From positions 174,314-238,313 of the forward strand of contig JBBHKE010002481.1 in the NCBI GenBank assembly GCA_037447655.1: a DNA stretch of 64,000 nt, read 5' to 3'. A model generated the notes under the pieces. It did no database searches and was not told the origin of the DNA. It saw only the letters and a list, made by a program, of their open reading frames with translations. The DNA is from Zygnema cylindricum (taxonomy: Eukaryota > Streptophyta > Zygnematophyceae > Zygnematales > Zygnemataceae). Positions 1-42,033 of the stretch are shown here, one piece after another. Position numbers and translations under genes: made by a program. How positions within the stretch are numbered: the first letter of the stretch is position 1; each line of letters opens with the position of its first letter.

Positions 1-266
1 TATACGAGTGTGGATTGGTGTGACACGTGCTACATCTCGGTTAGGCTGTTCGAAATATTCTCCTATTGTAGTCGGGGTTTTCCCGTTGGTTTATGCCCAC
101 GGATTGGGATAACCTTCCTTATCAATCTGGTTCCACCCGAGGTAGTACATTTTATTGTCATCTGAAGTTAGATTTTTCGGAATTTCCCAAATTGTTGACC
201 ACATCCAATCCAGTTGCGGATAGCAGATCGCCGTTAGTGCGGTTTGGTCTGACATCTATGTCATAA
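1..266 (+). other. Element G, 5' part without a clear frame
   Basis: This stretch precedes the readable gag of the gypsy-type element G, whose beginning lies outside the window. I see no LTR end and no primer site here. It is probably decayed 5' gag or leader of element G, judged only from its position. Confidence 0.35.
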
Positions 267-1384
267 TTGTCCTCGGTTTCATATAGGTCATACCTAGAGG
301 GGACCGAAGAAGACTTTCCGGAGGAGACCTTTCCAACTCCTCACACTTGTAGGTTCCCTACTAGCCCAACTTTGGCACAACCAGCGCATCCTCCCTTTTA
401 CGACATGGCTTCCTCTTCAGAGGAATCCATGGGTAAGATGCAATTCTGCTTTACCGGATTAAAGGACACCATGACCTTATTCCATTTTCGGATCTAATAC
501 GACACGCAAATGAGGGATCTAGCCTTTAGATATCACGATAGGTTTGACTTCGGTGTCGCCTTTTCCCAACTCGGTCGATACTTTCGTGGTTCCGCCCTCA
601 CTCTCTACAATCGCAAGTTCGAGGATGTTATTGCGATGATAGAGTACAAGGCTCCTTTTGCGAGGTTACCAAAAGTCTTCGGCCAGGTGGATATCCCATA
701 TAAGGATGCGAGACTTGCTGTATTAGATGCCAACGGGGACGAGTTGTATCCAGTTATCCCCGAGATTCCTCGTCAGTATACAGTGGCTGACCGAGCGGTG
801 GTCCTAGCTAGAGCGGGGGGAACCATTCCTCTACGTGACCCTTTCTCAGTCATGTTTGACATCCTCTAAGAGGAGTACTGGATGCAAAATCCGGATCAGA
901 TCAAAGAGTTGATGAACTTCGAGCGTAGGCTAAGTGAAACTACTCTTGCCTTGCGAGCTCGAATGGAAACTCTGCGAGATGCATTACCAGACCTCATGTC
1001 CGATGCGGAGGCTGTCCAAAAATTTGTGGGACAGTTTCTAGGTCCATCAAAGAGGTTTATCCAAAACCACCTTAGCCAGATGTATGGACTGAAATTCACC
1101 TTTGAGCAAGCGGCTCAATATGCGGTAGAGTATGAGATGCAACATCGTGGTGGGACGCCCACGAGTGGTCCAAACATCCTCACAGGGAACCGGCTAACCC
1201 ATCTCCTCCTCCACCTAAAATCTCATGGCCTCCCAATAGGCCCCAGAAGACGCTAGCCATGGGAACTCCACCCGTTAGTCTTTGAAACCTAATGTGTTTC
1301 CGATGTGGAAAACCGGGCATGACGCTCGCATGTGCCTTGACAATGCAGCCACTTGCACTCATTGCCACCAAAAGGGACATTATG
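267..1384 (+). pseudogene. Element G gag, first part (to second zinc knuckle)
   Basis: One frame runs from 267 to 1256 with stops at about 497 and 869. It reads as an unfamiliar N-terminal region, then a helical capsid-like part (882-1140), a Pro-rich linker and two CCHC zinc knuckles near 1285-1384. Gag binds and packages the element's RNA. The first knuckle (CFRC...) appears to have lost one base, which shifts the frame. The second knuckle is cut by El1 exactly at its GHY residues and resumes after 7844. Assignment to gypsy type rests on the collinear protease, RT and integrase downstream. The N-terminal fold is not recognised. Confidence 0.7.
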
Positions 1385-1613
1385 TGTAGAAATTAATGGT
1401 CTTTTTAAAGTATTTTCTAGGTCTGAATAGAAATATAGAAAGAAGGCGAGGCAGTCTACCTCTAACTTCTCTCTCCAAACTCTCAAACTTGTCGCAGTCA
1501 TTGAGAAATTGGAGAGGAAGCTAGAGCCATGGCTACCTAGGATATCCACAGGTTTACAAGATATAAATATTAGTAGGGGTTTATTTACTAAAATTATATG
1601 TGACAGCTCCAGG

Positions 1614-1690
1614 ATTTGATCCTAGAACCTGCCGGCCGGTAAATAGTTAATAGCCGGTAGCTTTAACTGTTAAATCTAGAGATTGTGTTA
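1614..1690 (-). other. tRNA-like module inside LTR (antisense to El1)
   Basis: Read on the minus strand this has a D-arm/A-box-like part (a decayed form of TTAACGGTTAAGGC) followed by a T-arm-like part with a seven-base loop, resembling a Pol III B box. Every family A LTR in the window has it at the same place and orientation. No full cloverleaf with an anticodon can be drawn here, so it is not called a tRNA gene. Confidence 0.5.
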
Positions 1691-2282
1691 CTTAGTGTAG
1701 GGTTTGATAATTAATTAAACATTAATACGTAGGATAGTTTATTTAACTGAAATTGTTTTACGGGAGACATAGATCCAGTAATGTAAAAGTACGGATTACG
1801 GTACGGATAAGAAACGAATACCGCGCATTTATTTCTTTAGCGAAACGAATACCGCGCATGTATTTATTACGGCTACGATTAAATGTGAATTTAATCGGCG
1901 ACCGAAATTAAACGCCGAGATTGCGGAAGAGAATTTCCGCGGTTTTTGATCATCGCCACATCGGATGACACGTGGTGGAATGACATTGGATCGCGGCATC
2001 TCCGAGGATTAAATGAGAGAATCCGGATATATCACGTGTCGTCATTTAAGGCATGTCGTACAATGTTCGTACAGAAAGTACACCGGCACCGGTAATTTTT
2101 TTTACGGAGGAGTAATCTGATTGGCTCCGTACATCAGTAGATAGAGTCTGTGAGAGAGATAGGACTTAGAAAAATTAGGAGATAGGACCCTCTCTCCCAG
2201 AGAGCTTCTGTACAAAAGGTCAACTTTGACCCCCCATAACTTACTGCTCAGGGAAGCAAATTCAAAGTTTCTTTTTGCTATC

Positions 2283-2316
2283 GACTCAGGGGAGTCTTGC
2301 CTTCACAGGGGTGAAG
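2283..2316 (+). promoter_or_regulatory. Two adjacent RNA stem-loops in U5 of the LTR
   Basis: GACTC...GAGTC (2283-2296) and CTTCAC...GTGAAG (2301-2316) can each fold into a short hairpin. The second one co-varies between subfamilies (see finding). The position just upstream of the primer site suggests a role in packaging, dimerisation or priming; that is inference. Confidence 0.55.
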
Positions 2317-2421
2317 TTGGTCAAAGTTTTTGTTTACCAGGGTGGCAGTTGTACTTGCTGAAACACAAAGGGGTCAGGGTTATCCTAGAGGCTTCTTAGA
2401 AGCTCTCCACTTTGAGGACTT

Positions 2422-3554
2422 ATGGAGGTCTTAGAGTTTCAGGTTATGGGCCCACCCTCTAGGGTACCAATCTTTAATGGAACTGACTTCATATATTGGG
2501 AAAGTATGGTGATACGAGCTCTATGCGAAAAAAGGTTTTGGGGGATAGTGAGTGGACGATTGGGGCGTCCATCAAGTGTTGGAATTCCTCTAGGGTTTGA
2601 AGGAAGCAGATTCACAAAGAAAGCAGGTCCATCTTCAACGGAGGAGACAAAGGAAGGAGAGGTGGTGGACAAAGGAGCGGAGAAGGAGACGACCACACCA
2701 TTAGCAAGTGGTTCAGCATTCATGTCACATATTCCGAGGAACGAAAAGGATGATACTCAAACATAGGATTTCAACAATATGGCGGTAGAGCACTTCATCC
2801 CACGCTTCCTTACTCAAGGACTTGCATGTCTTCATTTACAGGTTGAAAGGACATCTGATCTGCGGATGGCTCTCATAGAGATGTACCGAAGTGGTACGAT
2901 TCAGCAACAACAGTTGGCTGATCAGAAAGTTAACGAATATGTATACAAAGGGGTGAAAATGTTTGATTTTTGCAATGAGCTTGCTACACTCTTCATGGAG
3001 CTAGAGAGTACAAGAAAAGATCTTAGTGAAAAAAAAAAGGTTAACTGTTCACTGATGAAGTTACCTGATGAGTTCGAGAACAAAGTCAACCGTGTGCAAG
3101 ACTTGCCGAACTCAAGGTGGATATGGAACTCAGTCGTAGGGATAATTCTCGTTTGGGAGAATATGATTGAGATCCGAGGGGAGGAAAGAGTGGCCAATCC
3201 TTGGCAACTTCGACCGATTGGAGGAACAAGGATTCACGGAAACTAGTCGGAAACTATGGGGGAAGGGAGCAGAAAAATTAGGCCGACGAGTTCGGGCCAA
3301 GGGCTCCTAAAGGTTTATGTCATTTTTGCAAGAAACCGGGGCATTATATGGCAGAGTGCACTAAGCTAACCGAGCTTCGGTTAAAGGAGGGGCAGACAGG
3401 TGGTACCTCGAGAGGAAAGAAAAAGGCCCTTGTGACACAGGTACATGAGGCGGAATCCGAGGAAGAGGATGATGAGCTCCTTTTGGATGAGGAGTTGGAG
3501 GCGAAAAATAAGGTCGAAATACCACGAAGGCAAAAATGTGCTTACGGTGGATAG
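2422..3554 (+). pseudogene. El1 gag
   Basis: The start ATG at 2422 lies in the last 20 bases of the LTR, and the primer site is translated. The copia Gag begins MEVLEFQVMGPPSRVP and keeps the element-wide signature FNGTDFIYWE. Stops fall at about 2764 and 3244. A complete CCHC knuckle, CHFCKKPGHYMAEC, is at 3318-3359, followed by a Glu/Asp-rich tail to the stop at 3552. Gag would form the virus-like particle and bind element RNA. The same start context recurs in El3, El4 and El7, which supports the chosen start. Confidence 0.85.
2442..2456 (+). other. El1 primer binding site (half-tRNA initiator Met)
   Basis: GGTTATGGGCCCACC follows the LTR end with no gap. It is the reverse complement of the anticodon stem and loop of plant-type initiator tRNA-Met, as I recall that tRNA, not of its 3' end. 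Drosophila copia, yeast Ty5 and Volvox Osser are known to prime from an initiator-Met fragment in this way. The site is also coding, giving the QVMGPP part of Gag. Confidence 0.85.
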
Positions 3555-5100
3555 AAAGGTGAAGCAGGCTGGATTATAGATTCAGGTGCCTCCATGCACA
3601 TGGGTAAGGATATGCACCTATTCACTAAGATAAGAAAGATTCCCACCGTAGAGATAGAGTACGGGGATGGGAGGATAGTCACCACTACTCTTGTAGGATC
3701 GGTAGATCTGAAAGTGTTAGTAGAAGGAAAGACATCCATAGTAACTTTCTCCGATGTATTGTTTATTCCGGAGCTGAACAAAAACCTCATCTCTACATCT
3801 GTATTAGATGATAAGGGTTTTTTTACTAGCTCTAGGAAAGGAGTCTTTACTGCTAGTTTTGAGGAGGATGTCTATTTCATTGCTGAGAAAGGTAGCCATG
3901 GGATGTTTAGGCTTATTTTAAATAATGAAACGAAGAAACTTTATTATGCTGGTGTTGAAGGTATTATGATGTGGCATAAGAGGCTTGGGCATGTGAATCT
4001 AGATAAGTTAAGAGAGATGAAAAAGATGGGAGTGGTGGAAGGGATTCAGTTCAGTGAGAGTGAAAATATAAGTGATTGTAGTGGATGTGCTCAAGGTATA
4101 GCACACAGATTACCTTTCATGAAACAGCCACCTATAAGGGAGAAAAAATTCTAGATCTAGTACACACAGATATTTGGGGACCGGCTAAAGTGCCCTCACC
4201 GAGGGCGAAGAGATTTATGATGACTATCACAGATGATTGGTCTCGGTATTCCCGAGTGTATTTTTTGAAAAACAAGTTTGAAGCTCAGGATTGTTTTAGA
4301 CAATATAAAGCATGGAGCCAAAAACTCCATGAAACTCCAATCAAGAGAAGAAGGAGTGACAATGTTGGAGAGTATACTTCTAACTAGTTTGAGGATTTTC
4401 TGAGGGAAGATGGGGTCCTACACCAAAAGACAGTTCCAGAAAACCCGGAACAGAATGGGGTAGCTGAAAGGTTAAATAGAACACTAAGTGATAGTGCTAG
4501 AAGTATGTTGTCAGATAAGAAGATAGGAAAAAAGTTTTGGGAAGAAGCAATGAACTGTGCTAATTACCTCAAAAATAGAGTTCTTACTTCAGCTATAAAA
4601 GATCAAACACCTTATGAGAGATGGACAGGCCGGAAAAAAGACATATCTCACTTAAAGGTTTTCGGTAGTCAAGTATTCAGTCTAGATACAGATCGGTCTA
4701 ATTAGAAGCTAGATCCTAAAGGAAAACCGGGATACTTATTAGGATATGATGAGGATGTTAAAGGATATAGAGTTTATGATCTAAAAAGGGAAGATATAAT
4801 CTTAGTAAAGCATCTAGTAGTTATGGATGAAAGAAAGTCCGTGGATCCTTTCAAGTAAACAAACTCAGTAAAAATCAAATTTGAGTCAGAAATTCCGATG
4901 ACTTTGAACTTCCTAATTTTCCAAGTTTTAGACAAGATGACATTCTTGCAAGTATAAATCAGACGAAAAAGAACTCGGCGTCGGAAACTCTAATGACAGC
5001 TCTACCCGAAGCGGAAGACGTGGTGGAAACTGATTCGGAATCAAGGCACAGGTGAGAAGCCGAGATTGTTCGAAAGAACCCACGAGAACCATCTATTCCG
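3555..5100 (+). pseudogene. El1 protease and integrase
   Basis: The aspartic protease motif DSG is at 3579-3587. Next comes the integrase zinc-binding part (HKRLGH near 3972 and CSGC near 4078) and the catalytic core with HTDIWG, SDNVGEY and NGVAERLNRT. The second catalytic Asp sits in SDNVGEY where relatives have SDNGGEY. A frameshift lies near 4140, and stops lie at about 4388 and 4703. A variable linker follows to about 5100. The protease would process the polyprotein and the integrase insert the cDNA; neither can be made intact here. Confidence 0.85.
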
Positions 5101-6773
5101 GCCACAGATTTTGAGGGGGGGAGGAGAAGTAGCAAAAGATTGCAAGAAGAACAGGTTAATAACAAGGTAACAACACTATCTCATCAAGATGAACCTCAAG
5201 CTTATGGAGAGGCGATGACTTGCCCAGAAAGAAACCGGTGGAAGAAAGCCATAAATGAGGAGATGGCCTCAATTATGGCAGCCGATACTTGGGAGCTGGT
5301 GGACTGTCCACCTAACCGAAAACTAATCGGTTGTAAGTGAGTTTTTAAATTAAAACTGAATCCAGATAACACAATCGAGTGCTACTAGGCCAGATTAGTG
5401 GCAAAAGGATTTACACAAAAAGAGGGAATTGACTACGAGGAAACCTTTGCCCCGGTCGTCAAATTTCCCTCCGTCCGCATTCCTCAGTCTGGCACCAGCA
5501 GAAGACATGGAAGTGCACCTGATGGACATCAAAACAACCTTTTTGCATGGAGAATTTGAAGAGGAGATCTTCATGCGACAACCCGAAAGGTTTGTGGAAG
5601 AAGGAGAGGAGAGTAAGGTATGTCGGATTATTAAATCTCTTTATGGTTTGAAACAAGCGCCTCGACAGTGGAATAACAAGCTTGATGAGTTTCTTACCGC
5701 TCTAGGATATAATCGGATCAGCTCAGATCACTCAATCTATGATTTTGAAGATGAGGAAGGTTTTATATTTATTGCAATTTATATTGATGACTTGCTTGTT
5801 TTAAGTAAATCAATGGAAAAAATTAATAAACTGAAAACCGATCTTAATGGGAGATTTGAAATAAAGGATATGGGGTAAGCAAAATATATTTTGGGAATTC
5901 ATGTAGAGAGAGAACGAAAAAGAAAAATTATAAGATTGACTCAAAAGGAAGCAATAGGGAACATGTTTGAAAAATTTCAAATGGATAAAGCTAATAGTTG
6001 TAGAACTCCAATGGAGTTGAAGAAGAGAAGTGAGGGGAGTGAGGAAGAAGGAGTCATAGTCTTAGACGAGGAATTATCTCTTGAAGAACAGAAGTTTATG
6101 TAGACTATTCCTTATTGCAAGTAGTGGGAAGTCTAATCTATTTTATGACTTCTACCCGGCGAGATTACGTTGCAGCTGTAGGAGTGCTGAGTAGAAGTCT
6201 AAATGCTCCCACTAAGAGGGATGGGAGGCAGCTAAAAGAGTCCTTAGATATTTGATAGGAACTAGGGATCTATGGTTGCATTTGGGTGGGGAGAATACTG
6301 ACATCACTACTTGGAGTGATGCCAGTTATGGTGATGCTCCGATGAGGAAATGCACTTCTGGATATGTATTATATGTGGGTGATGGGGCTTGCTGTTGGAG
6401 TAGCAAACAACAAAAAGTTATTGCTCAGTCCACCATGGAGGCTGAGTATATGGCCTCTTGCTCTGCTGTAAAAGAATTGATGTGGGTCAAGTCTTTGCTT
6501 GGTGAGCTTGGTCACCTTAAGAGTGGTGTGCAGATTTTTTTTTGTGATAATCAAGCAGCAATTGCTATTTCTGCCAATCCTAAACATCATTTTAAAGCCA
6601 AACACATGGACATAAGACTCAGCTTTGTTAGAGAGAAAGTAGAAAACAAAATAATCAGTTTAGAGTACCGACCAGATAGTGAGATGGTAGCAGATATGAT
6701 GACCAAACCTGTGCCTTCCCCTAAGCTAATTTTCTGCAGGAAGAAGTGTGGTTTGAAATTAAAGATTGACTAG
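5101..6773 (+). pseudogene. El1 reverse transcriptase and RNase H
   Basis: The copia RT begins near the TWELVDCPP motif and has the catalytic YIDD at 5780-5791. RNase H follows with TWSDASYGD near 6315 and the terminal block KHMDIRLSFVREKVENK. Stops occur at about 5338, 5387, 5876 and 6101, and a frameshift lies near 6110. The domain ends at the stop at 6773, directly before the polypurine tract, the usual copia layout. Confidence 0.88.
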
Positions 6774-7843
6774 AAAATAAGATGAGTTTAGTAATTTATG
6801 GTCTTTTTAAAGTATTTTATTGGTCTGAATAGTTATATAGAAAGAAGGCGAGGCAATCTACCTGAAACTTCTCTCTCCAAACTCTCAAACTTGTCGCAGT
6901 CATTAAGAAATTGGAGAGGAAGCTAGAGCCATGGCTACCTAGGATATCCAGAGGTTTACGGGATATAAATATTAGTAGGGGTTTATTTACTAAAATTATA
7001 TGTGACAGCTCCACGATTTGATCCTAGAACCTGCCGGCCTGTAAACAGTCAATTGCCATAGCTTTAACCGTTAAGTCTAGAGATAGTGTTACGTAGTGTA
7101 GGGTTTGATAATTAATTAAACATTAATGTGTAGGATAGTTCATTTAACTGAAATAGTTTTACGAGAGACATAGATCTAGTAATGTAAAAGTACGGATTAC
7201 GGTACGGATAAGAAACAAATACCGGGCATTTATTTTTTTAGCGAAACGAATACCGCGCATGTATTTATTACGGCTACGATTAAATGTGAATTTAATCGGA
7301 TGAGCGAAATTAAACGCCGAGATTGCGGAAGAGAATTTCGGTGGTTTTTCATCATCGCCACATGGGATGACACGTGGCGGACTGACATTGGATCGCGGCA
7401 TCTCCGAGGATTAAAGAAGCATATCGGGATATACCACGTGTCGACATTTAGGGCATGTCGTACAATGTTCGTACAGAAAGTACATTAGCATCTGTACTTT
7501 TGTGTACGGAGGAGTAATGTGATTGGCTCCGTACATCAGTAGATAGAGTGTGTGAGAGAGATAGGACTTGGAAAAATTAGGAGATAGGACCCTCTCTCCC
7601 AAAGAGCTTCTGTACAAAAGGTCAACTTTGACCCTCCATAACTTACTCCTCAGGGGAGCAAATTCAGAGATTCTTTTTGCTATCGACTCAGGGGAGTCTT
7701 GCCTTCACAGGGGTGAAGTTGGTTAGAGTTTTTGTCTGCCAGGGTGGCAGTTTTTCTTGCTGAAACACAAAGGAGTCAGGGTTATCCTAGAGGCTTCTTG
7801 GAAGTTGTCCACTCTGAGGACTTATGGAGGTCTCAGAGTTTCA
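6774..7843 (+). repeat. El1 polypurine tract and 3' LTR
   Basis: The purine run AAAATAAGATGAG at 6774-6786 should prime plus-strand DNA. The LTR follows at 6787-7843. It starts TTTAGTAATT instead of the TGTAGAAATT of the 5' LTR, so the usual TG end is lost. The same altered start is found in El2. It ends GAGTTTCA, followed by the TTATG duplication. Confidence 0.88.
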
Positions 7844-8373
7844 TTATGTTTATCGGTGCCACATCAAAGAACCTAATTTCCCTTATCAAAATCAGAAAAA
7901 GAATGGCAAAATTCTGGCCGGTTTAGCGAAACCAGTCACTTCGCATAAAGAGACCGAGAAGGAGGAAGCTCCTCCTAAGATCTCTCGTAGAGATAGGGAG
8001 AAGGCCAAGCTTTAAGGCACAATGGTGGCCATGATGAAAGAGCAATTTGTAGCTTTCATGGCGGAAATCAAACCCCAATTTACAAGGATGGCTAAGACCG
8101 TTTTCCAAATGTCGTCGTTGGCGGGGCGAACCCTTTGGGATTCCACCGTCCAACAACGGGTAGCTACATTTGAAAAGGGCTCAGCAGGCCATAACCGAGT
8201 GGGCAAATTACAATATTTGCGTGTCCCACTCTCATTTGCAAAAGAGCCTCTGCCTCCCTTATCGAAAACGGCTTCTACCATCGCGCCGGAGGCACTAACC
8301 ATATTGGATGGTAGTATTCATGAGGCTCATTAGGTGAAGGAGCGATTAAGTATTCATTTAGCAATGATAGAGG
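7844..8373 (+). pseudogene. Element G gag, end part and linker
   Basis: This resumes inside the second CCHC knuckle, one residue block after the El1 insertion, and runs into a Lys/Glu-rich tail ending at 8013. A further frame, 8022-8333, belongs to the region between Gag and protease. It is interrupted by stops near 8014 and 8331. No known domain is seen in the linker. Confidence 0.65.
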
Positions 8374-9124
8374 ATGTACCAAAAGTCGTTCCCCCTCGTT
8401 GATGAGGTCGCAGCAGCAGTTGCTTTGAGGGCTCTGCAGTTAAACCGCAATCTCTTAGCGGTTCAACGAGTTACTACGAAAGAGCGTCGTAATCTCGATC
8501 CCCATATCAATTTCCTTGATAACTCTCAGGGATCATTCTCAGTGAACGGTATTGACCCCACTCTTCTTCTCATGGACACCGGGGCCAAACGCGTGATCCT
8601 CGGATCCGGATTTGGGATCAAGCTTGGTCTGACAGTAGACACGCTTCATGCGACAACTACCCGCCTTCTTATTTCGGGTGGGACCACGAAGCCGGTACTC
8701 AGAATCACAAAGGGCCCGCTCATCTTTCGGTTTCAGACCGGAACTGAAAATGAGTCTGTTGAAATTTCCATCAGAGCATTGGTCACTAAATGTAATGACT
8801 ATGAGTGTTTGGTGGGTCGATACGTTATATTTTGAATTGGTGGTGGCGTGGACATGCACAACCAAACATTCTCTTACTGACCGACACACTTTTAGGAGCG
8901 CAAATTTTGCCTCTCTCTCATTTCAGCCCGCCGACCTTTGCCCACTTTGGCTCACTCGCCTACGGCTCTCCCCGCATTTTTGGGGAACTTTGTTGTGGAG
9001 GAAATTTTCCACTCACTTTCCGCCGAATAAATCATACCAGATAGTTCTCCTTTACCCGAGCTCTTTATGGAAGCGGGTTTTTTTATCGATTCTCACACAT
9101 TGGACCACAACTATAAGTCTACAT
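8374..9124 (+). pseudogene. Element G retropepsin-type protease
   Basis: An open frame at 8374-8835 contains LLMDTGAKRVILG, the catalytic DTGA of an aspartic retroviral-type protease, with the following strands of the fold up to the YECLVG segment. After 8835 the frame breaks, but the sequence still resembles the region after the protease until LTR-B1 at 9125. The enzyme would cut the Gag-Pol polyprotein. It lies between Gag and the methyltransferase of the same element. Confidence 0.75.
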
Positions 9125-9187
9125 TGTTGTTTTGAAAAGCCAATTTCGTGAGTGCGTGTCGTTTCCTGCGTACACAATGTTTCGTGG

Positions 9188-10922
9188 TGAAACTTTGAGA
9201 CCTCCATAAGTCCTCAGAGTGGACAACTTCCAAAAAACCTCTAGGATAACCCTGACCCCTTTGTGTTTCAGCAAAAATAAATGCCACCCTAACAGACAAA
9301 AACTCTGACCAACTTCACCCCTATGAAGACAAGACTCCCTTGAGTCGATAGCAAAAAGAATCTCTGAATTTGCTCCCCTGAGCAGTAAGTTATGGAGGGT
9401 GAAAGTTGACCTTTTGTACAGAAGCTCTCTCGGAGAGAGGGTCCTATCTCCTAATTTTTCTAAGTCCTATCTCTCTCACAGACTCTATCCACTGATGTAC
9501 GGAGCCAATCGAATTGCACATTCGCACACAAAAGTGGAGCTGCCGGTGTACTTTCTGTACGGACACTGTACGACATGGCCTAAAAGTCGACATATGTCAT
9601 ATCTGGATTCGGTGTCGTAATCCCCGGAGATACCGCGATCGAACGCAATTTTGCCACATGTCATCCGATGTGGCGATGACCATAAACCGCCAAAATCCTA
9701 TTCTGCGATCTCGGTGTTCATTTTGGCCGTCGGATCAAATTCCCATTTAATCGTAGCGGTAATAAATACCTACGTGGTATTCGTTTCGCTAAAGAACCAA
9801 ATGCGCGGTATTCGTTTCTTATCCGTACCGCAAACCGTACTTTTACATTACTCTATATATGTATCCCGTAAATAGTTTCAGTTAAACGAATTATCCTAAG
9901 TGGTAAAGTTTAATTAAACATCAAACCCTATATTATGTATCGTAACATCTAGACTTAACGGTTAAGGCTACCGGCTACCGGCAACTTAACGTCCGATAGG
10001 TACCAGGATCAAATCCTGGTGGGAACATATATCCTTTTACTAAATAAACCCCTAACGGTAAATAAACTAATATATATTTCCCGTAAACCTCTGGATAGCC
10101 TAGGTAGCAATGGCTCTAGTTTCCTCTCCAATTTCTCAGTGACTGCGACTAGTTTGAGAGTTAGGAGAGAGAAGTTAGAGGTAGACTGCCTCCGCTTCTT
10201 TCATTATTTCTATTTAGACCTAGAAAATACTTTAAAAACAGACCATTAATTTCTACAAGTATTTGGCAGCACGAATTCTGGGAATTAAAAGAACGAGTCC
10301 TGATAAGACACGTGCTAGTTTTTGGCCTTGTCGTACGATGGCCGTACAAAAGGTACACCGTCACCTGTACCTTTATGTACTTTACAGTCTTGTCATTGGT
10401 TCGTACTTAAGTAGTAGGGGGCTTAGAGAGGGTTTTTAGGTTTTATAATAATTCTGGTAGGTAGCTGCCTCTTCAGAGAGCACCTTGTATAAATGGCAAA
10501 CTTTGGCAAGTCATAAACATCAATTCAGTTGACCATTTTCATTGAATCTTTTTGCCGCACACTCAAGGGAGTCCACGCTACACAGGGGTTTAGTCGGTCA
10601 GAGTTTTTGCATGCCTGGGTGGCTTTTTTTCTAAGGAAAAGTCAAAGTGGGTGAATGTGTCCAAATCTCATATTTTAACTTTGTATTCTGTGGTGGAACT
10701 GAGCACACAGAAAGTCTTATTTCACAAAGGTGAAGCTGTAATGGGTTTAATTTCCCGTAAACCTCAGGATAGCCTAGGTAGCCATGGCTCTAGCTTCCTC
10801 TCCAATTTCTCAGTGACTGCGACAAGTTTGAGAGTTTGGAGAGAGAAGTTAGAGGTAGACTGCCTCGGCTTCTTTGTTTCTATTCAGACCTAGAAAATAC
10901 TTTAAAACCATTAATTTCTACA
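9188..10922 (-). mobile_element. Rearranged family A1 insertion in LTR-B1
   Basis: It is flanked by the 5-bp duplication CGTGG (9183-9187 and 10923-10927). It consists of a full A1 LTR on the minus strand (9188-10257), a plus-strand fragment of another family A LTR (10258-10752) and the first 170 bp of a second minus-strand A1 LTR (10753-10922). There is no coding interior. The outer ends are true LTR ends, so the middle was probably replaced after or during insertion. Confidence 0.75.
9955..10030 (+). other. tRNA-like module inside A1 LTR (antisense to the LTR)
   Basis: This is the best-kept copy in this subfamily. TTAACGGTTAA can form a D-arm-like hairpin, and CCAGG-ATCAAAT-CCTGG forms a perfect five-base-pair T-arm with a seven-base loop. 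It resembles the internal A and B boxes of a Pol III promoter. Confidence 0.5.
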
Positions 10923-11127
10923 CGTGGGTACAGCACGAGATTCTTATGCTATTTTGATTTGTTGTGGAGGTTTGAATGGATCTGCGAATTGGGGGAGTAA
11001 TGGTAGTAATTGCTTGGGATGTACGCAATTATTTGAAGCAATGGAAATGTCAACGGAAGTGGTGGTGATGGTTGAACAAAAGGGGATAAGGGAGGAATGC
11101 GGATTTAGTGGCTGAGAGTGTCTAAAG

Positions 11128-17554: not shown

Positions 17555-17567
17555 AAAATAAGATGAG

Positions 17568-19350: not shown

Positions 19351-19412
<62 letters not shown>

Positions 19413-24638: not shown

Positions 24639-24643
24639 GTACA

Positions 24644-25968: not shown

Positions 25969-25973
25969 ATAGT

Positions 25974-29528: not shown

Positions 29529-29543
29529 TACCTACGAGTATGA

Positions 29544-32295: not shown

Positions 32296-33063
32296 TTGGA
32301 CCAAGAATGAGGAAGCCTCTAGGTAGTTTTTAACTAACCCACTTTCAACGAAAACAATTGCTATCCTAGCAGATAAATAGATAACTTGACTGCACCCTGT
32401 GTAGTCTGGACTCCCTTGAGACCACAGCAAAAAGAATCACTGAAAACGCCTTAACAGGCGATTAGTTATCAAGTGGCAAAAATGCCAATATATATACAAG
32501 CTTGTTTGGAGAGAGGCGGCTACCTCTTAAATTCTCTAAGTTCTAAACCCCTCTCACAACCCCTATCTACTGATGTACGAACCAATGAGAAGATTGTTCA
32601 GTACAGAGAAGTACTATGCTCGATGTACTTTCTGTACGGCTGGTGTACGACAAGGCCATAGAGGGGACGTCTGTCTCCTTTGGACTTGCCCATATGCTCC
32701 CCGGGATTCTCGCTTCCCAATGATATCTTGCCACGTGTCAAGAGGTCATGTTACATCCGCAAACCGCAAAGACAGCCATACCAAGAACCCGGCGATGGTG
32801 CGAGCCGTTGGATCCTAAACTAGCTTTTAATGTTCGCCGTGGAAAATAGCAAATGTCAAATACATTTGTTTCGTGCGTACTAAAACCAAACTAGTCTTTA
32901 TGTCTTTAATTTGGTATTCCACTAATCGGATTAATGCTATAACTAATGTTTAAATAGCTATCGAACCCTATGTATCCTAACAGACTACTACGACAAACTG
33001 GTAAGGTTTTACGGCTACGCCTCGCCCTACCGCTCGGAGGTTCGAGTCCTGCCGGACTCAACC
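32276..33063 (-). repeat. El7 5' LTR, truncated
   Basis: It runs from the primer site to just past the tRNA-like module (about 32998-33060) and then breaks off. The missing part corresponds to the first roughly 230 bp of the LTR. A TATATATA element lies near 32491 on the minus strand. Confidence 0.85.
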
Positions 33064-34368
33064 TTTCTATGGGCTCCATTGCCACACAAAATTCGCAGGT
33101 CCAAAGGAAGCTAATCTAGATAGTGTCGACTCCAAGTTTATATAAACCCAAATGATTCACCACTTGACAATCAGAAACCCATTATAGCTTCATCCTTGTG
33201 AAACAAGATTTTCTGTGTGCTCAGTTCCACCATAGAATGCAAAGTTAGAATATGAGATTTGGACACATTCACCCACTTTGACTTTCCATTAGAAATAAAG
33301 CCACCCAGGCAAGCAAAGACTCTGACCGACTACACCCTTGTGTAGCTTGAGCTTCCCTGAGTCTGCAGCAACAAGAATAACTAAAATTGGTCAACTGAGT
33401 TCATTGTTATTGCTCGCCAAAGTTTTCCTTTTATAGAGATGCTCTTTGGGAGAGAGGTGGCTACCTACCCGAAATATTCTAAGTCCTAAACACCTCTGTA
33501 AACCCTCTAGTACTGAGGTAGGTACTAATCACATCACTATATAGTATATAAAGGTACAGGTGTCGGTGTAACTTTTGTACGGCCATCGTACGACATGGCT
33601 AAAATGTCAACACATGTTTTTTCCAGATTCGCTCTTATAATCTCAGGAATTCATGCCTCCAAATCTTATCTCTCCACGAGGCGCCATGTCATGCCACGTT
33701 AGGAAAATGGTACCAGACAAGAAAGTAAAGGTGCCAGAGTACTTTCTGTACGGACATTGTACGATATTGCCATATTGCGACATTTGTCACATCCGGATTT
33801 GTTGTGTTCTGTTCCGAAGATTTCGCAACCCGTATGATGTCACCACGTGTCACTTGGAGTGGTGACGTTCGCAAACGGCCAAATTATCCTTTCCGCACAC
33901 CGGCGCTAACCATGGCCGTCCGATTTATATCGTCATTTATTACAGACCGTCGAAACAAATGTCCGTACTATTTGTTTCGTCCGGTACTAAAAGAACAATT
34001 GTTTCTTTGTCCTATATAGCGTAATCCAGTTAAATTAAAAACCCTACATGTAGCTATTTAAATACCTTTCAAACCCTATATGTCCCAGCACTAGTCATAG
34101 ACTAAATGGATAAGGCTAATGGCTGTGGGTGACTTGACGGACGGTAGGTTCCTGGATCAAGTCCTGGGTCCGTCAATTACTATTCGGTAAGTCTACCCAC
34201 TTTTCCCCCTGTCTTCTCTAGAGAGCTTAGGTAGCTATGGCTCTAGCTCCCTCTCCAGCCTTTAGTGACTACAACAAGTGTGGGGGCTTAAAGAAGGGAT
34301 TTAGAGGCAGACTGCCCTGCTCTTTTCCTATCCTAAATAAAGACCTAGAAAATAGTCAAATATCAACA
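33064..34368 (-). repeat. El6 3' LTR
   Basis: About 1305 bp ending TATCAACA. It lacks only the last five or so bases of the LTR at its junction with El7. It carries a TATA-type box near 33432 (minus strand) and the tRNA-like module near 34100-34175. Confidence 0.85.
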
Positions 34369-36131
34369 CTCCCCTTATTTTCTAGTCTATTTCCCTTTGC
34401 CTCTTACAAGCAAATAAACAAACATTCCCTTCCCTTTTTCCTTTTCCTCTTTATTTTTCTTTTCTTTTCATAAAACTTTAAGACAACACCATCATATTTA
34501 GTAAGGTTCATTAAATGACATGAAGTAAACATTCCATCAAGTTGATCATATGTTTTATTTAGCATCTCACTTTTCATAAATCCGAGCAAAGATATTATCC
34601 ACCTCATCTCTTTTCCATCAACACAAAAACCGATTTCCCTCTTGTAATTCAACCAGTTAGCCCCATCTCCATTCTGCAAAACACACCCAGATGCTATCCC
34701 TTTTACAGGCACACCTTTATAAATGACATCACTCCCATTAGTGATGTCAAAGCCATTACCCCCAAAAATTGAACTTTCCTCACTCTTTCCCATCAATTTC
34801 TTTCCACTATCACTTTCTATTTTTATTCCCAAAAAATATTTCTTCTCCCCTAAACCTTTCATTAAATATTTCCCTTCTTCCCTATCCTTTAAAACCCCTT
34901 CTAGTTTTACTTCTCCCCTTTCCTTAGAATCTAATGAAGTCTCCCTATTCGACCAGTTTTATGTTTTCAACATATCTATAAAATTATCCTCATTATTTCT
35001 AACTCCCTCAAGTACCTCCTTTTTACTTCCCTTATACCTCCGAAAGCACACTGTTGCCTCCGTGGAATTTTTGTGTGCTTTTCTCTCTTCTCCATTCTAC
35101 CAATGTGAACAAGCTCCAAAATTTCTTCATCCTCTTTCTCCTCTTCCCCTTCTTCCTCCTCATTCACATACCAACTTATAAGTTCTTCTAAACAAAGACA
35201 CTCCTCCATATAGTGACCCGATTTCCTACAAGTGAAGCAATCCCTTTTTTTTTAAAGCTCCCCTTTCTTTTCCTCTCCCTCTCTATCCACCGAAGTTCCG
35301 ATAAGGTTTACCTTTGTCCTTCTTACTCTCATTATGCTTTCGCAAGTCACCACATGCTGTAAATGCACTCACCCTTTCACTTCCCCTACGAAGCTCCAAA
35401 GTGCTTTCCCTCACAAGAATTATCCCCATGGTAATGCTCTAAATCCATGAGGAGACATCCAATCCCTGCATACGGTAAATGATGTCTTCGTACTCATCTG
35501 GGAATTTCATGATTAGTGTATTAATCTTTCTTTCCTCAGATTCTACATATCCCTCACTAGCAAGCTCAATATGTAATGCAGCAATATCATTGCAAAACTC
35601 TATCATGCTACCGCCTTTATACACATAGGCCTCTATTTTTTGTTCTACTAACTGCTGCCTCTGTATAGTCTCACTCTTATAAATCTGAATTAGTTTTTCC
35701 CATATCTCTGAAGACTTCGTTAAGTTTATAAGAGCGATAGCTATGGACTTAGACACATTTCTAAGTATGAGATGCTTTGCTATAGTGTTTTTGTATTCCC
35801 ATGTTTTTTTGTCATTTTTTCACTTTTAATCCCTACAAGTGGTACCGTAGCCGAGAGCCTAGCTCCCCTCACCATAGGTGTCCCTTTATCCTTCTCCCCT
35901 ATTTCCCCTTCCATGGTAAAGATTTTCCCTTCACCTTCCGTCGCATCTGAACCCCGATTGGTTTTTTGGGCAGCCCTAGATTATTCTCTATAGTGAGCTC
36001 CTCCAGAGCTCGGTGGGGGACACCTCACTTAACCCAAAACAATTCACCAAAAGTGCTTTTCGAAAAACAATCCCTCTATTGTAAACTCCCAATAAGTGAA
36101 GTCTGTTCCATCGAACATAGGCACCCTAGAT
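34369..36131 (-). pseudogene. El6 Gag and chimeric RT/RNase H tail
   Basis: Gag: capsid-like frame 35439-35756 (KSETIQRQQLVEQK), CCHC knuckle CFTCRKSGHYMEEC at 35198-35239, acidic part 34976-35190. Tail: frame 34404-34862 with GLGEKKYFLGIKIESDSGK (RT relic) and GFDITNGSDV (RNase H relic, Trp lost), then a Lys-rich end. It is the third copy of the same deleted architecture. Confidence 0.8.
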
Positions 36132-37457
36132 GGTGGGCCCATAACCTGAAATTCTAAAGGCTCCATTGCCACACAGAATTCGCAGGTCCAAAGGAAGCTA
36201 ATCTAGATAGTGTCGACTCCAGGTTTATATAAACCCAAATGATTTACCACTTGACAATGAGAAACCCATTATAGCTTCATCCTTGTGAAACAAGATTTTC
36301 TGTGTGCTCAGTTCCACCATAGAATGCAAAGTAAGAATATGAGTTTTGGACACATTCACCCACTTTGACTTTCCATTAGAAATAAAGCAACCCATGCAAG
36401 CAAAGACTCTGACTGACTACACCTTTGTGTAGCTTGAGCTCCCCTGAGTCTGCAGCAACAAGAATCACTAAAATTGGTCAACTGAGTTCATTGTTATGGC
36501 TCGCCAAAGTTTTCCTTTTATAGAGATGCTCTTTGGGAGAGAGGTGGCTACCTACCCGAAATATTCTAAGTCCTAAACACCTCTCTAAACCCTCTAGTAC
36601 TGAGGTAGGTACTAATCACATCACTGTATAGTACATATAGGTACAGGTGGCGGTGTAACTTTTGTACGGCCATCGTACGACATGGCTAAAATGTCAACAC
36701 ATGTTTTTTCCAGATTCGCTCTTATAATCTCAAGAATTCCTGCCTCCAAATCTTATCTCTCCACGAGGCGCCATGTCATGCCACGTTAGGAAAATGGTAC
36801 CAGACAAGAAAGTACAGGTGCCGTTGTACTTTCTGTACGGACATTATACGATATTGCCATAATGCGACATTTGTCACATCCGAATTTGTTGTGTTCCGTT
36901 CCGGAGATTCCGCAACCCGTATGATTTTACCACGTGTCATCCGGAGTGGTGACGTCTGCAAACCGCCAAATTATCCTTTCCGCGAAATCAGCGCTAACCA
37001 TGGCCATCCGATTTATATCGTCATTTAATACGAACCGTCGAAACAAATGTCCGTACTATTTGTTTCGTCCAGTACTAAAAGTACAATAGTTTCTATGTGC
37101 TATATAGCGTAATCTAGTTAAATAAAGAATCCTACATGTAACTATTTCAATACTTATCAAACCCTATATGTCACAACACCAGTCATAGACTAAATGGATA
37201 AGGCTAACGGCTACGGGTGACTTGACGGATGGTAGGTTCCAGTATCAATTCCTGGGTCCATTAAGTACCTTTTGGTAAGTCTACCCACTTTTCCCCCTGT
37301 TTTCTGTAGAGAACTTAGGAAGCCATGGCTCTAACTCCCTCTCCAACCTTCAATGACTACAACAAGTGTGGGGGCTTAAAGAAAAGAGTTAGAGGCAGAC
37401 TGCCTCTTCTCTATTCATATCCTAAATAAAGACCTAGAAAATACTCAAATATCAACA
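36132..37457 (-). repeat. El6 primer site and 5' LTR
   Basis: The primer site (reverse complement GGTTATGGGCCCACC) is at 36132-36146 and the LTR at 36147-37457, 1311 bp. A TATAAAAGG box lies near 36522 on the minus strand. The tRNA-like module is near 37193-37265. ATAGT follows. Confidence 0.88.
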
Positions 37458-39274
37458 ATAGTCTTTCCCGTGCTCCCCTAGGCCTTTGAGGTAATCCAGA
37501 TCAGTTTTTTCTCTTTCCTTCTCGGACTCTGCCTCCTTTGCATATCACAATCTACGATTTCCTTGACCCTAGTCACAGGTCATGGGAGGTTCCAGCCTAT
37601 ACGGCTGCTCAGTCCACTCTATTCCCTTCTACCTCGCCGGTTCCACATTGGAGGACTGCATATCCCACTCGCAGCTGGCACCAGTGAGTGAACTTTGTGC
37701 AGCAAACACCGGTAAAATACGAGTTAGGCCACTCCCTCATCGTCGATGACAAAATCGCATTTGCTCACGCCATAGAAGCTTTCACTTTCAAGTGTCTTGA
37801 GACGTCGAATTGGAAGTTCGGTTCCAGTCTCACAAAGGCAGAACATGCACTACTAAGTGTTAAGTCACACGTCATATAGACGCGTTTGCTTTCTCCATAA
37901 ATGACCTTGGACGTCATTCTACTTACAAAATGTTAATTGACCTTGAAGACGATCGACCTATCTTTAAGCCGAAACACCGTCTCTTTGAAATGGAATGGGA
38001 GATGGTGGACAAACGATGCGCAGAATTGGAAGAAGCTGGTCTAATCTATCAGTCGGATTCCACCTTTGCCGCCCCCACAGTCATGCCTAGGAAAAAAAAT
38101 TCTGATAGAAATTTTACTGAGCGAAGAATGTGTGGGGACTACCGAGAGCTCTATGCCTGACTTTTCAAGACCGCCACCCTATGCCTCTAGCGGAGGAAAT
38201 ATTTGACCATGTAGGTGGTGCGAAGTATTTTAGCATTCTTGACTTACTTCAAGGGTTTAACCAGATTTAAATCGAGGAAAGAGATCGGCATAAAATTTCA
38301 TTTTGGGGTAGTGATGGTCAGTGGGAATGGGCAGTCATGCCCTTAGGTCTTAAAAACGCACCCGCCGTGTTTCAAAAAGTCATGGATTCGGTGCTGGGTG
38401 GATGTAAATTCGCTCGGTGCTACATCGATGACTTGATAATTGCTTCCGCCACGGTGGAGGAGCACGCCCGTCATATTGAGTGGGTTCTCACCGAGTTAAA
38501 AAAAATCTGGCTGAAGTGTCACCCAACCAAGTGTACTTTCGGTGCAGAGGGAGTGCCCTATCTCAGCCATTTTATTTCGGCTTAGGGCATCACTCCCTTG
38601 GAAGCTAAAGTAGAGGCGATCACCAAACTGTCGGCCCCCACAGATCTCACTAGTCTGAGGGCTTTTCTTGGGCTAGCCAATTAACACCGTCGATTTGTAA
38701 CGAATTTTAGTACGATTGCTTTTCCCCTTAATAACCTTCTCAAAAAAGAAGTGACTTTTGTTTTGGGACTCGCCCAAGTAGAAGCGTTTCAAAAACTGAA
38801 AACCGCCTTTTCCAGCGTTCCCATTTTTCGACCTCTTAACCACAAGCTTCCCTTTTGCCTACAGACTGATTTCGGGAAGCTTGACATTGCGGCCATTTTA
38901 ACGCAAATAGAGTTGAATGGAGAGGAATACATAGGGGCATACGCGAGTCGGAGCAATAATCGAGCTGAATCTAACTACAGTAGTTACGAGGGTGAATATC
39001 TCGCCGTGGTATAGGGAATTGTTCATTTTCGACATTATCTTTACGTCAAGCCATTCACTCTCCTAACTGACCATCAACCCCTTCATTTTTTGATGACCAA
39101 CAATAAGCTTTCAAGGACGCTTGCCCGGTGTGCTTTAATTTTACAAGAGTACGACGTTGAGATCATCCATCGGCCTGGGTTGTTAAGCTTGAAAGTCGAC
39201 AAGATTTCCCGGAATCCACTACCTCAGACCACCGATAACGGGGTCCGGCAAGAATTCGACGAGGACCAAGTACT
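37458..39274 (+). pseudogene. Element G reverse transcriptase and RNase H
   Basis: After a spacer, frame 37930-38160 gives the RT N-terminal part (MEWEMVDKRCAELEEAGLI, RRMCGDYREL). Frame 38337-38585 gives MPLGLKNAPAVFQKVMD and the catalytic YIDD at 38421-38432. RNase H follows in 38751-39014 and 39090-39270 with TDFGKLDIAA, YEGEYLAV and TDHQPL. Stops lie at about 38158, 38267, 38583 and 39012. The motif style is Ty3/gypsy and quite unlike the copia RTs around it. It is cut by LTR-B2. Confidence 0.85.
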
Positions 39275-40431
39275 TGTTGTTTTTGAAATGTTAGTTTCGT
39301 ACTTACGCCACATTTTGTGCGCACGTGACGGTTCGTGCGTAGATTATTACCGAAAATAATGTGGTAGTACAAATGGAGGTTTGAATGGATTTGTGGATTA
39401 AAGGGAGTAATTGAGTGGCTCGGAATACGTTTGCAAATGGACGGCGGATCGCGAAGCGATCCGATGTGAAATGTACGAAATGTTGAATATGTACGCCGCC
39501 GGTACGGAGCGTCTTATTTGGACAAGTGTACTTTATTTGCGAGAGGCGTATTTATTGCAAAGGACGCTGGTTCGGTACAGAAAAGATTTTAATGGTACGG
39601 TTTAATTTCGGCAAGTGGTCCGTGGTACATTTGGAGGGCGGACGGCGTCCGCCGATATTTCCAAAGGATTGCGTTTTTGATGATGTGGTATCAAGTGGAC
39701 CGTACGTATGTGATGTCGGTTCATGACGTGGTTTCATCCTCAAGTGACTAATCAAGTTGATGCCTAGTACGCGGATTTTACGAAAGCGTCGATGTAAATA
39801 TTTGGTTGAACATTGATTTGTCTTTTTGTGAATTAATTATTAGTGTAGATTTACTCACTTTGACATACCTTGAAGTATTCGGGTATACCAACATTAATAG
39901 AGGTAGCTGGTAGATAGCGTACGGCTGATATGCATCCGTACATTCAGCAGTAAGCTCTTGTATATATATTTGTAGGACTTAGTCATTTTAGGACATAGGA
40001 ACTTTTTGGACCAAAACTGTTTATGGTTATTTTTGGTAATTTTATCCGAAGATTACTCTCAAATCTCTTGGCAGAATTGTTTGAAATTCAGCATGTGTGT
40101 TCCTATATATACTCGTAAAATTGTCACATATTTGCAGGCCTATTGTGTGCCTGGTCTGTGTTTTACTTCATTGTGAAGTTAGTCTATTTTATCAAATTTC
40201 TGGCAGACTGTTTTTGTGCAACTTTGAATAGATGATGTGATCTCTATGTTTATTATTTTTGTCTGAAACTTTGTGAGGTTATTCCATAGCCTAGATAATA
40301 TTTTTTAATGTAGTTTCAGCCTGTTTTGTTTATTCTGTTGAATTCTGTGTGAATCCAGAGTTGGCTGTTTTTGGGGTAGTCTGTGGTGCTTCCGAGGGTG
40401 AATCCATGGCTAGAAATGGCTATGGACAACA
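39275..40431 (+). mobile_element. Solo LTR-B2
   Basis: 1157 bp from TGTTGTTTTTGAAATG to TATGGACAACA, flanked by GTACT and GTACC. A TATATATAT box at about 39959-39969 precedes TAGGACTTAG (39973-39982). It inserted between RNase H and integrase of element G. Confidence 0.87.
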
Positions 40432-41790
40432 GTACCTGCCATGTCGGCTCTTTTCTATATCACTTACTGTCTCTCTTCTATTCCTCACCCTCGGCCAGCC
40501 ACAGATCCGTGGCGCGACGGCCCATTAATCCTCTTCCTCTCCTCTCAAACCTTTAGGCCCGATATTACCCCCGAGGAGGAAGACCGAGTAAAGAAACGAG
40601 CCAAAAATTATATGTGGCTCGGCGGATCTTTAGTTCGATTGCTGGCGGAAAGTAGTCATCGGCATTTCCCCCGGCCAACTGAACGCTTGTCCTAAATTGA
40701 GCATAAACATACCGAGCTCGGACACTACATGACCAAGCGCACTCTGAGCCTTGTACACGCACGTTATTGGTGGTCCAGAATGCAAGCAGATGTGGCGGCC
40801 ATTCTCCACAAATGCGCCACATGCGACCGGTTACGCATCTCTTTCTCTAATTGGCAGGTGTATCTACAGCCATTGCCTATAAGAGGATTGTTTTATCGCT
40901 GGTCCGTGGATCTCGATGGATCGTTTCCCTTATTCCGAAAGGGGGAACAATACATCATGATAATGATAGAAAATTTTAGCAAGTGGGTAGAGGTGGTCGC
41001 TCTTCCCCACAAGACCGCTATATTGACCACCGCTGCTTTTTAAGAGCACATTCTCATGCGTTATAAAGCTCCTGCGGAGGTTCATACGGACCAGGGTACA
41101 GAGTTATGAGGGGAATTTCAAGAGATGTTGGATGAAGATTTAATTGATCATCGCCGGAAGAGTCATGATCACCCAGAAGCTGATGGCTTGACGGAACGAG
41201 CTGTCTAGACTTTCAAGCAGGCTCTGCGAAAGCATTAATTCGAGAAACACATCTCCGTCTGGGACGAATCCTTGGGCTATATCGCCATAGGATATCGGAT
41301 GTCCGTGCAAGCTAGCTTGGCTAATTTCAGCCCGTACTATATTCTCTTCGGTCGATCACCCTTGCTCAGTCAGAATATTTAGAAAGGGACAAGCTTACCT
41401 TTGCCTCTAATGTCTGACGCAATATTTTTGGAAAAACTTACCCGACGTGCTTTACTTTTCGCCAAAGAGATACCTATGGCTTTTGACAGTTTGCAAATAG
41501 CCCTGCATAAAGAAACTTTAAGGTTCGCCACCATGCGGAGTGGCAATTACAAGCCACAACACGAATCTTACTTGGTGGGTGATTACGTGTACCTCCGACG
41601 ACAATCGTTCGATACTTTGGACACAAATGTTTCACTACACATTCTTCGTGTGGGGAAAATGGATGCTAATGGGATGTTTGGTTTGCAGGGTGCGAATACA
41701 AGGACAATTCGAGAGCATACGAAGAATTGTGCACCTTATTACTTATTGGATATGTCACAGGTTATGGATCCGATGAGGATTGCTATCACA
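40432..41790 (+). pseudogene. Element G integrase
   Basis: The zinc-binding HHCC region lies near 40705-40830 (GHYMTKRT ... CATCD). The catalytic core has SVDLDGSFP near 40903, HTDQGTE (Asp at 41089) and GLTERAV (Glu at 41194), giving a D,D-about-35-E spacing. The C-terminal part runs to about 41720 with NYKPQHESYLVGDYVYLRR, a typical gypsy integrase end. Stops at 40693, 41041, 41107 and others make it dead. A PHD finger follows. Confidence 0.87.
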
Positions 41791-41802
41791 GAGGCGACGG
41801 AA

Positions 41803-41937
41803 TGTACCATCTGCAGGCGAGCAGACGGCGAGACTTAAATGCACTTGTGTGACCATTGCAACCAAGGGTTCCACATGGAGTGCTTAGTTCCTCCATTGGA
41901 GGCTATGCCAGCTGGCCGATGGTTCTGCCATGGTTGT
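41803..41937 (+). pseudogene. Element G PHD finger at integrase C-terminus
   Basis: A Cys4-His-Cys3 zinc finger with all eight metal ligands: CTIC, CDHC, GFHMEC and WFCHGC. One stop (TAA, 41836-41838) lies between the first and second Cys pairs. PHD fingers read the histone H3 tail. At the end of an integrase it takes the place of the chromodomain of chromoviruses and could direct insertion to certain chromatin; that role is inference. Confidence 0.85.
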
Positions 41938-41977
41938 CGTGAGCTGCCGACGGTTTTGACCGGTTCCTCCGCATGCT

Positions 41978-42033
41978 TAAAAGTTAGGGGGGTGAATTAT
42001 GGGGTGTATCTCAGTCTAGGGGAGTATTCTTCT
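41978..42033 (+). other. Element G polypurine tract and possible 3' LTR start
   Basis: The purine run AAAAGTTAGGGGGG is followed by TGAATTATGGGG. This may be the 3' LTR start, cut after about 42 bp by El8. The 5' LTR is outside the window, so it cannot be checked here. Confidence 0.4.

What the first reader, a model, noticed from the sequence alone, without database searches (positions are those of the whole stretch)
1..42033. A gypsy-type retrotransposon carrying both a DNA methyltransferase and a PHD finger, hidden under nested insertions
Seen: gag knuckles, DTGA protease, C5 methyltransferase motifs, RT YIDD, RNase H, integrase and a Cys4-His-Cys3 PHD finger all lie on the + strand in one order. 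The interruptions are separate insertions, most with their own target duplications (TTATG, TCCAT/C, ATAGT, GTAC). Known: C5 methyltransferases in LTR elements have been reported from charophyte algae and dinoflagellates, and PHD fingers occur at some gypsy integrase ends. Inference: one element with a writer of DNA methylation and a reader of histone tails could set its own chromatin state and choose targets. The methyltransferase sits between protease and RT.
Basis: partly seen in the sequence, partly recalled or inferred. Interest (0 to 1): 0.88.

Follow-up and report, generated by a model that had tools for sequence, protein, structure and literature searches.

The report
Jumping gene carrying DNA-methylating enzyme
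Under layers of later insertions lies a decayed copy of a mobile element whose younger relatives in the same genome encode, in one long protein, the usual copying machinery plus an enzyme related to those that methylate DNA and a finger of the kind that binds histone tails; an element with such an enzyme was already known from one green alga, and the finger is the new addition.

Summary
Six pieces of one Gypsy-type retrotransposon lie in order on the + strand, split by five insertions; four sites show clear target duplications. The same genome (352.8 Mb) holds a large family of relatives. In 15 of 20 copies read, gag, protease, methylase, RT, RNase H, integrase and PHD finger follow one another; one copy has them in a single 2395-codon frame. 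The methylase, split in the window, is contiguous there, so it is no host-gene fragment. It is DNMT3-like, with Glu-Cys in place of Pro-Cys in motif IV. A second family (methylase about 41% identical) has the same order from protease on, ordinary motif IV and a PHD-like end. dN/dS of methylase and PHD finger is low, from few pairs. All four copies whose ends were read have A-coding-B-A-B repeats, as published for KnitGypsy-Dnmt3 of Klebsormidium nitens; three have exact 4-bp duplications. So: a new variant of a known kind, the PHD finger beside the methylase, the copy number and the second family being new in what I could read. Self-set chromatin is untested, and CpG content does not support strong CG self-methylation. 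Methylase-free relatives are not excluded: 67 of 149 RT places could not be judged.

The parts
10..1385 (+). Gypsy element: 5' internal region and gag (named by position and zinc knuckle)
   Evidence: 85-87% to L022, L024, L030, L036; gag and knuckle matches among copies; no Pfam gag family
1385..7848 (+). Copia insertion 1 (LTRs 1384-2448 and 6786-7848, 92% alike); duplication CATTATG
   Evidence: its 5658-7843 is 90% alike to 16435-18623, whose ORF matches RVT_2
7842..9125 (+). Gypsy element: protease region (ORF 8371-8832)
   Evidence: Asp_protease_2 2.1e-4, below cut-off
9126..12206 (.). insertion 2, composite of LTR-like pieces; duplication unresolved (CTATAA near both ends)
12207..12522 (+). 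methylase, N-terminal part (motif I region)
   Evidence: 79-80% to four relatives; translation; joins the C part directly in relatives
12523..25147 (.). insertion 3, cluster of nested Copia elements; duplication CTTCCA
25148..25973 (+). methylase, C-terminal part (motifs IV, VI, VIII and frame-shifted remains of IX-X)
   Evidence: DNMT3A 4.9e-5; 79% to four relatives
25974..37457 (.). insertion 4, nested Copia elements, a large one on the - strand; duplication ATAGT
   Evidence: RVT_2 1.3e-62 at 28947-29531
37458..39273 (+). Gypsy element: linker, reverse transcriptase, RNase H
39274..40431 (.). insertion 5 (1.2 kb, 94-95% to 52803-53998 and 57356-58551); duplication AGTAC
40432..42032 (+). 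Gypsy element: integrase and C-terminal tail
   Evidence: Integrase_H2C2 5.8e-11; 86-87% to four relatives
41803..41937 (+). PHD finger, Cys4-His-Cys3, with a stop codon at 41836-41838 in this copy

Best explanation
The window holds an old, broken, repeatedly invaded copy of a large family of Gypsy-type retrotransposons. The best-kept member read encodes one Gag-Pol protein in the order gag, protease, DNMT3-like C5 methylase, reverse transcriptase, RNase H, DDE integrase, PHD finger. Shown: anatomy, contiguity, family, repeats, recent insertions, low dN/dS. Inferred: the methylase is carried with the reverse transcriptase and methylates new cDNA or chromatin at the landing site, so that the copy is not treated as bare foreign DNA; the PHD finger sits where chromoviruses carry a chromodomain (recalled) and ties the integrase to histone H3 tails, probably ones unmethylated at lysine 4, since several of its nearest solved relatives are such readers (recalled, except KDM5B) and it lacks the tryptophan typical of H3K4me3 readers (recalled).
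For: Full order in 15 of 20 fetched copies; one 2395-codon frame with all domains. Pfam on pieces of that copy: DNA_methylase 1.4e-12, rve 1.3e-12, PHD 1.3e-11, zf-CCHC 3.9e-4. A second family: DNA_methylase 8.5e-14, rve 5.2e-13, PHD-like 2e-4 below cut-off. DNMT3A is the best PDB match, 1.5e-10 and 4.3e-14. PHD nearest PHF12, KDM5/Lid, BAZ2B, WSTF, PHF21A, ORC1B; KDM5B PHD1, also listed there, binds H3K4me0 (PMC4225485, abstract start in the listing). Terminal repeats 99-100% alike in four copies; 4-bp duplications TTGG, CCCT, TAGA in 3 of 4. Median dN/dS: methylase 0.20, PHD 0.27, RT 0.10.
Against: Motif IV reads E-C in the first family, so catalysis is uncertain. The KnitGypsy methylase tested in yeast gave no activity, called inconclusive by its authors. 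CpG is not depleted: 0.88-0.96 in the family against 0.31 and 0.54 in two Copia stretches, though 0.65 in L049 and 1.14 at 60-64 kb. Phage C5 methylases are as close as or closer than DNMT3A, so a host DNMT3 origin is not shown. Close solved PHD relatives also include KAT6A/B, DPF3 and KMT2D, whose ligands differ (recalled). Copies were chosen by methylase hits and mostly by long frames. dN/dS rests on few pairs (14 methylase, 21 PHD, 12 RT) without a significance test; 19% of the PHD pairs are not below 0.5.
Confidence: 0.75

Rival explanations
1. Methylase and PHD pieces are remains of host genes caught between insertions, and the apparent order is chance.
For: Methylase piece below Pfam's cut-off in the window; the window is densely nested.
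Against: Uninterrupted copies carry the domains in order, one in a single frame; 151 methylase matches, 150 scored of 1340 first-look candidates.
Confidence: 0.02
2. The methylase is conserved but no longer methylates DNA: it acts on RNA, or as a nucleic-acid-binding part of the polymerase complex.
For: E-C instead of P-C in 34 of 35 distinct copies with letters at that site; no CpG depletion and low dN/dS.
Against: Catalytic Cys, E-N of motif VI and motif VIII A-H-R-V-R are invariant in the five aligned domains; the second family has P-C-Q.
Confidence: 0.25
3. The methylase marks other DNA (rival elements or host) rather than the element's own cDNA.
For: CpG low in two Copia stretches, higher in the Gypsy pieces.
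Against: The window's Gypsy copy itself shows more C-to-T change at CG (102 of 769) and CHG (94 of 575) than at CHH (152 of 2027), so it was probably methylated after landing, as plant-like host enzymes would do.
Confidence: 0.1

Closest known systems
KnitGypsy-Dnmt3 of Klebsormidium nitens (PMC5890265; passages and sections 9-11 seen)
   Same: Gypsy pol with a Dnmt3-related methylase inside the Pol frame, A-coding-B-A-B repeats, purifying selection on the methylase.
   Different: 'phd' does not occur in its main text (figures and supplements not seen); here a PHD finger is present, first-look candidates exceed a thousand, a second diverged family occurs, and motif IV is E-C in one family. Direct sequence comparison was not possible.
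SymbioDIRS-Dnmt3 (PMC5890265)
   Same: Dnmt3-like methylase in the frame with RT; A-coding-B-A-B repeats.
   Different: Tyrosine recombinase there; DDE integrase and 4-bp duplications here.
Methylase-bearing Gypsy and DIRS elements in general (PMC6338049, passages)
   Same: That text says DAM- and DCM-encoding Gypsy and DIRS elements were found in many eukaryotes, green algae and charophytes included.
   Different: No PHD finger is mentioned there ('phd' 0 occurrences).
Chromoviruses (recalled)
   Same: Histone-reading module at the integrase C-terminus.
   Different: PHD finger instead of a chromodomain; methylase present.
Ginger1-9_HM (PMC2836005, passages)
   Same: PHD listed among the C-terminal domains after a Gypsy-like integrase.
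   Different: DNA transposon of Hydra, with Ulp1; no RT or methylase listed.

Membership tests
Ty3/Gypsy LTR retrotransposons | gag-protease-RT-RNase H-integrase order | tested here: met
   15 of 20 copies with full order; gag rests on position and zinc knuckle
Ty3/Gypsy LTR retrotransposons | direct terminal repeats and short target duplication | tested here: met
   4 of 4 copies with direct repeats, 3 of 4 with exact 4-bp duplications and TG...CA ends; repeats are of the split A-B-A-B kind, not plain LTRs
KnitGypsy-Dnmt3 kind | Dnmt3-related methylase within the Pol frame | tested here: met
   2395-codon frame; DNMT3A best in PDB, with the origin open
KnitGypsy-Dnmt3 kind | A-coding-B-A-B repeats | tested here: met
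   B of 192-243 bases before and after the 3' A in 4 of 4 copies
KnitGypsy-Dnmt3 kind | sequence kinship with the K. nitens copies | not testable with these tools
   protein database off; no K. nitens sequence at hand
DNMT3 methylases | catalytic Cys, E-N of motif VI, motif VIII arginines | tested here: met
   invariant in five aligned domains
DNMT3 methylases | Pro-Cys of motif IV | tested here: inconclusive
   E-C in 34 of 35 distinct copies, P-C in L049
DNMT3 methylases | branching with DNMT3 apart from bacterial and phage enzymes | tested here: inconclusive
   unrooted tree of 11 rows: elements one group (100/99), DNMT3A on a long branch between them and six phage rows
DIRS elements | tyrosine recombinase in place of a DDE integrase | tested here: not met
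   rve 1.3e-12 and Integrase_H2C2 7.2e-16; no recombinase in the pieces scanned
Chromoviruses | chromodomain at the integrase end | tested here: not met
   PHD but no chromodomain match in the C-terminal pieces
PHD fingers | Cys4-His-Cys3 | tested here: met
   intact signature in 12 of 20 fetched copies; in 4 more the finger is there but the signature is broken; not found in 4

The most novel reading that the evidence does not exclude
A retrotransposon rebuilt, within one polyprotein, the logic of a host de novo methyltransferase: a finger that reads H3 tails lacking K4 methylation fixed to the integrase and a DNMT3-like writer fixed to the polymerase, so that each new copy lands in chosen chromatin and is marked on arrival. 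Two families whose methylases are about 41% identical keep the arrangement.
Probability: 0.3. Interest if true: 0.85.

Novelty: new variant of a known kind. Interest (0 to 1): 0.62.

Why it matters
Elements are normally targets of DNA methylation; here an abundant family with recently inserted copies keeps its own methylase and a likely histone reader. It extends the KnitGypsy-Dnmt3 case to another genome (a streptophyte, probably of the Zygnematophyceae, by inference), shows the design in two diverged families, and makes it testable whether such elements choose and mark their landing sites.

Tried and rejected
Rejected: methylase as a host fragment. Viral-contig scans with the window's methylase piece and with L049's methylase found no relative, genome contigs with L049's likewise. 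Phage DNA search with 24500-26500: no match. Phage protein search: 175 records, 20 listed, C5 methylases at 23-29% identity. The search for methylase-free relatives stayed incomplete. Host identity is inference: GRAS genes present (27 matches; [quoted passage not shown] cylindricum SAG 698-1a_XF (PMC11096116, passages and section 6). Other Zygnematophyceae are not excluded. The SBP-family search did not complete.

Literature: searches. Their listings showed no report of a methylase plus PHD finger in one Gypsy element; only five papers were opened: PMC5890265 (outline, passages, sections 9, 10, 11), PMC11096116 (passages, section 6), PMC2836005, PMC6338049 and PMC5408684 (passages). PMC4225485 was seen in a listing only.
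Full report
What is in the window. Six stretches of one Gypsy-type element follow each other on the + strand: 10-1385, 7842-9125, 12207-12522, 25146-25949, 37490-39273 and 40432-42032. In L022, L024, L030 and L036 these are neighbours with overlaps or gaps of a few bases, apart from about 50 bases before the RT piece; L021, of another subfamily, matches parts at 65-73%. The interruptions are mainly nested Copia elements with their own LTRs (RVT_2 at 28947-29531, 1.3e-62, and at 16587-17423, 2.7e-10). Four of five insertion sites carry exact duplications: CATTATG, CTTCCA, ATAGT and AGTAC; at the one near 9125/12206 a 6-base match (CTATAA) is offset by nine bases and unresolved. Pfam finds RT, RNase H, integrase zinc domain and PHD finger over cut-off; protease, rve and methylase are below it in this decayed copy, and the gag piece matches no gag family. 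The methylase piece matches DNMT3A in the PDB at 4.9e-5. The methylase is cut in two by insertion 3, which the finding did not state. The PHD finger has a stop codon inside.

Relatives. The window lies at C1869:174314-238313 of a 352.8 Mb assembly. A search with the methylase piece gives 151 matches, the window's own included; 150 of 1340 first-look candidates were scored, so this is a lower bound; the others are 60-80% identical. Twenty copies were fetched, 18 chosen for long open frames and two by rank. Fifteen show gag to PHD in full order (L038 with a poor first RT stretch, L032 with an internal duplication). The other five: L025 ends at the integrase against another element, L033 has extra sequence between RT and RNase H and runs out in the integrase, L034 lacks one integrase piece, L035 lacks RT and RNase H, L040 lacks the protease. 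All 18 with both protease and RT have the methylase between them, but all 20 had been picked by a methylase hit. One copy (L021) carries everything in one frame of 2395 codons; scanned in pieces it gives DNA_methylase 1.4e-12, rve 1.3e-12, PHD 1.3e-11, zf-CCHC 3.9e-4 and a protease match below cut-off. That open copies exist is stated as an observation only.

Second family. L049, found by a Pfam search of the genome (123 of 782 candidates scored), has a protease frame (below cut-off) and, after one stop, a 1520-codon frame with methylase, integrase and a PHD-like end by Pfam; RT and RNase H were read from the translation, not scanned. Its gag was not looked for. Its methylase is about 41% identical to that of the first family and has P-C-Q. 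Its PHD-like match (2e-4) is below cut-off, and the simple Cys4-His-Cys3 pattern did not match it.

Ends. In four of four copies with flanks the 5' and 3' A repeats are 99-100% identical over 931-1475 bases, and a B stretch of 192-243 bases stands both before and after the 3' A. In three copies the A-coding-B-A-B unit starts TGTC, ends GACA and is flanked by TTGG, CCCT or TAGA; the fourth (C2573) shows no duplication. One copy sits inside a Copia element. This is the repeat order that PMC5890265 gives for KnitGypsy-Dnmt3. Insertion of such a unit by an integrase means that the terminal B must be remade from the inner B during reverse transcription; this is inference.

Methylase. Motif I residues, the catalytic Cys, the E-N of motif VI and A-H-R-V-R of motif VIII are invariant in five aligned domains, one of them cut short. 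Motif IV is E-C in 34 of 35 distinct copies with letters there (40 rows, five copies present twice, four rows with a stop after the Cys; the one P-C row is L049; two more loci had no letters at the site). DNMT3A is the best PDB match: 1.5e-10 for L021, and 4.3e-14 for L049 against 3.1e-3 for DRM and 8.5e-5 for M.HhaI. Phage enzymes are as close or closer: BLAST bits 82 against 79 for L049 and 77 against 63 for L021, PHROG profiles 8.9e-23 and 2.5e-17, the bacterial dcm model below its cut-off. The small unrooted tree puts DNMT3A on a long branch between elements and phage rows, so the origin is open.

Selection and decay. Median dN/dS: methylase 0.196 (14 pairs, 12 copies), PHD 0.265 (21 pairs, 16 copies), RT 0.097 (12 pairs, 14 copies), RNase H 0.073 (21), protease 0.303 (40); gag and integrase had three pairs each. 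Pairs outside dS 0.05-1.2 were dropped, which is most of them, as were rows with stops or under 80% coverage; no significance test was made; 19% of PHD and 7% of protease pairs are not below 0.5. CpG observed/expected is 0.89-0.96 in seven first-family copies and 0.88 in two window Gypsy pieces, 0.65 in L049, 0.54 and 0.31 in two Copia stretches and 1.14 at 60-64 kb. Against three agreeing relatives, five of the six window pieces show C-to-T change at CG 102/769, CHG 94/575 and CHH 152/2027, with A/T transitions 191/3356. In four Copia LTR pairs CG sites differ in 7/49, 9/53, 11/44 and 6/54, other C sites in 14/137, 6/142, 7/88 and 1/226. So the old copy was probably methylated at CG and CHG, as in plants, but the family is not CpG-poor; this speaks neither for strong self-methylation at CG nor for protection from the host.

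PHD finger. Found in 16 of 20 fetched copies, with intact Cys4-His-Cys3 in 12. The best solved relatives are PHF12, KDM5/Lid, BAZ2B, WSTF, PHF21A and ORC1B, followed by KAT6A/B, DPF3, KMT2D and others; 90 sequences matched, 60 shown. That several of these read H3 unmethylated at K4 is recalled, apart from KDM5B (PMC4225485, listing). The ligand is a prediction.

Refutation test. The RT search scored 150 of 2363 candidates. Of 149 RT places other than the window's, 82 have a listed methylase 1.4-3.6 kb upstream, using one search's list and nine places; the remaining places, compared by eye, add none. The other 67 could not be judged because both lists are capped. Three of the 67 were read: L051 and L053 have methylase C-terminal remains, L052 has nothing recognisable. 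Methylase-free relatives are therefore not excluded.

Verdict. The sequence observation is right. The kind is known from KnitGypsy-Dnmt3, and methylase-bearing Gypsy and DIRS elements are reported more widely (PMC6338049, passages); the PHD finger, the copy number, the second family and the E-C motif are the new part in what I could read. The epigenetic function is plausible and untested.

Noticed in passing
50518-53997 and 55071-58551: A 3.48 kb direct repeat at 99.3% identity: a recent duplication or an assembly artefact.
   Followed up: no
39274-40444, 52803-53998, 57356-58551: The same 1.2 kb LTR-like insertion three times at 94-95% identity.
   Followed up: no
62037-62495 (-): ORF with an OTU-like cysteine protease match, E 1.4e-5.
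   Followed up: partly
60676-61457: AT-rich tandem repeats, periods 159 and 108.
   Followed up: no
L049 1477-6879: Second methylase-bearing Gypsy family with P-C-Q motif and PHD-like end.
   Followed up: partly
L051, L052, L053: RT places whose upstream methylase is truncated or replaced by unrelated sequence.
   Followed up: partly
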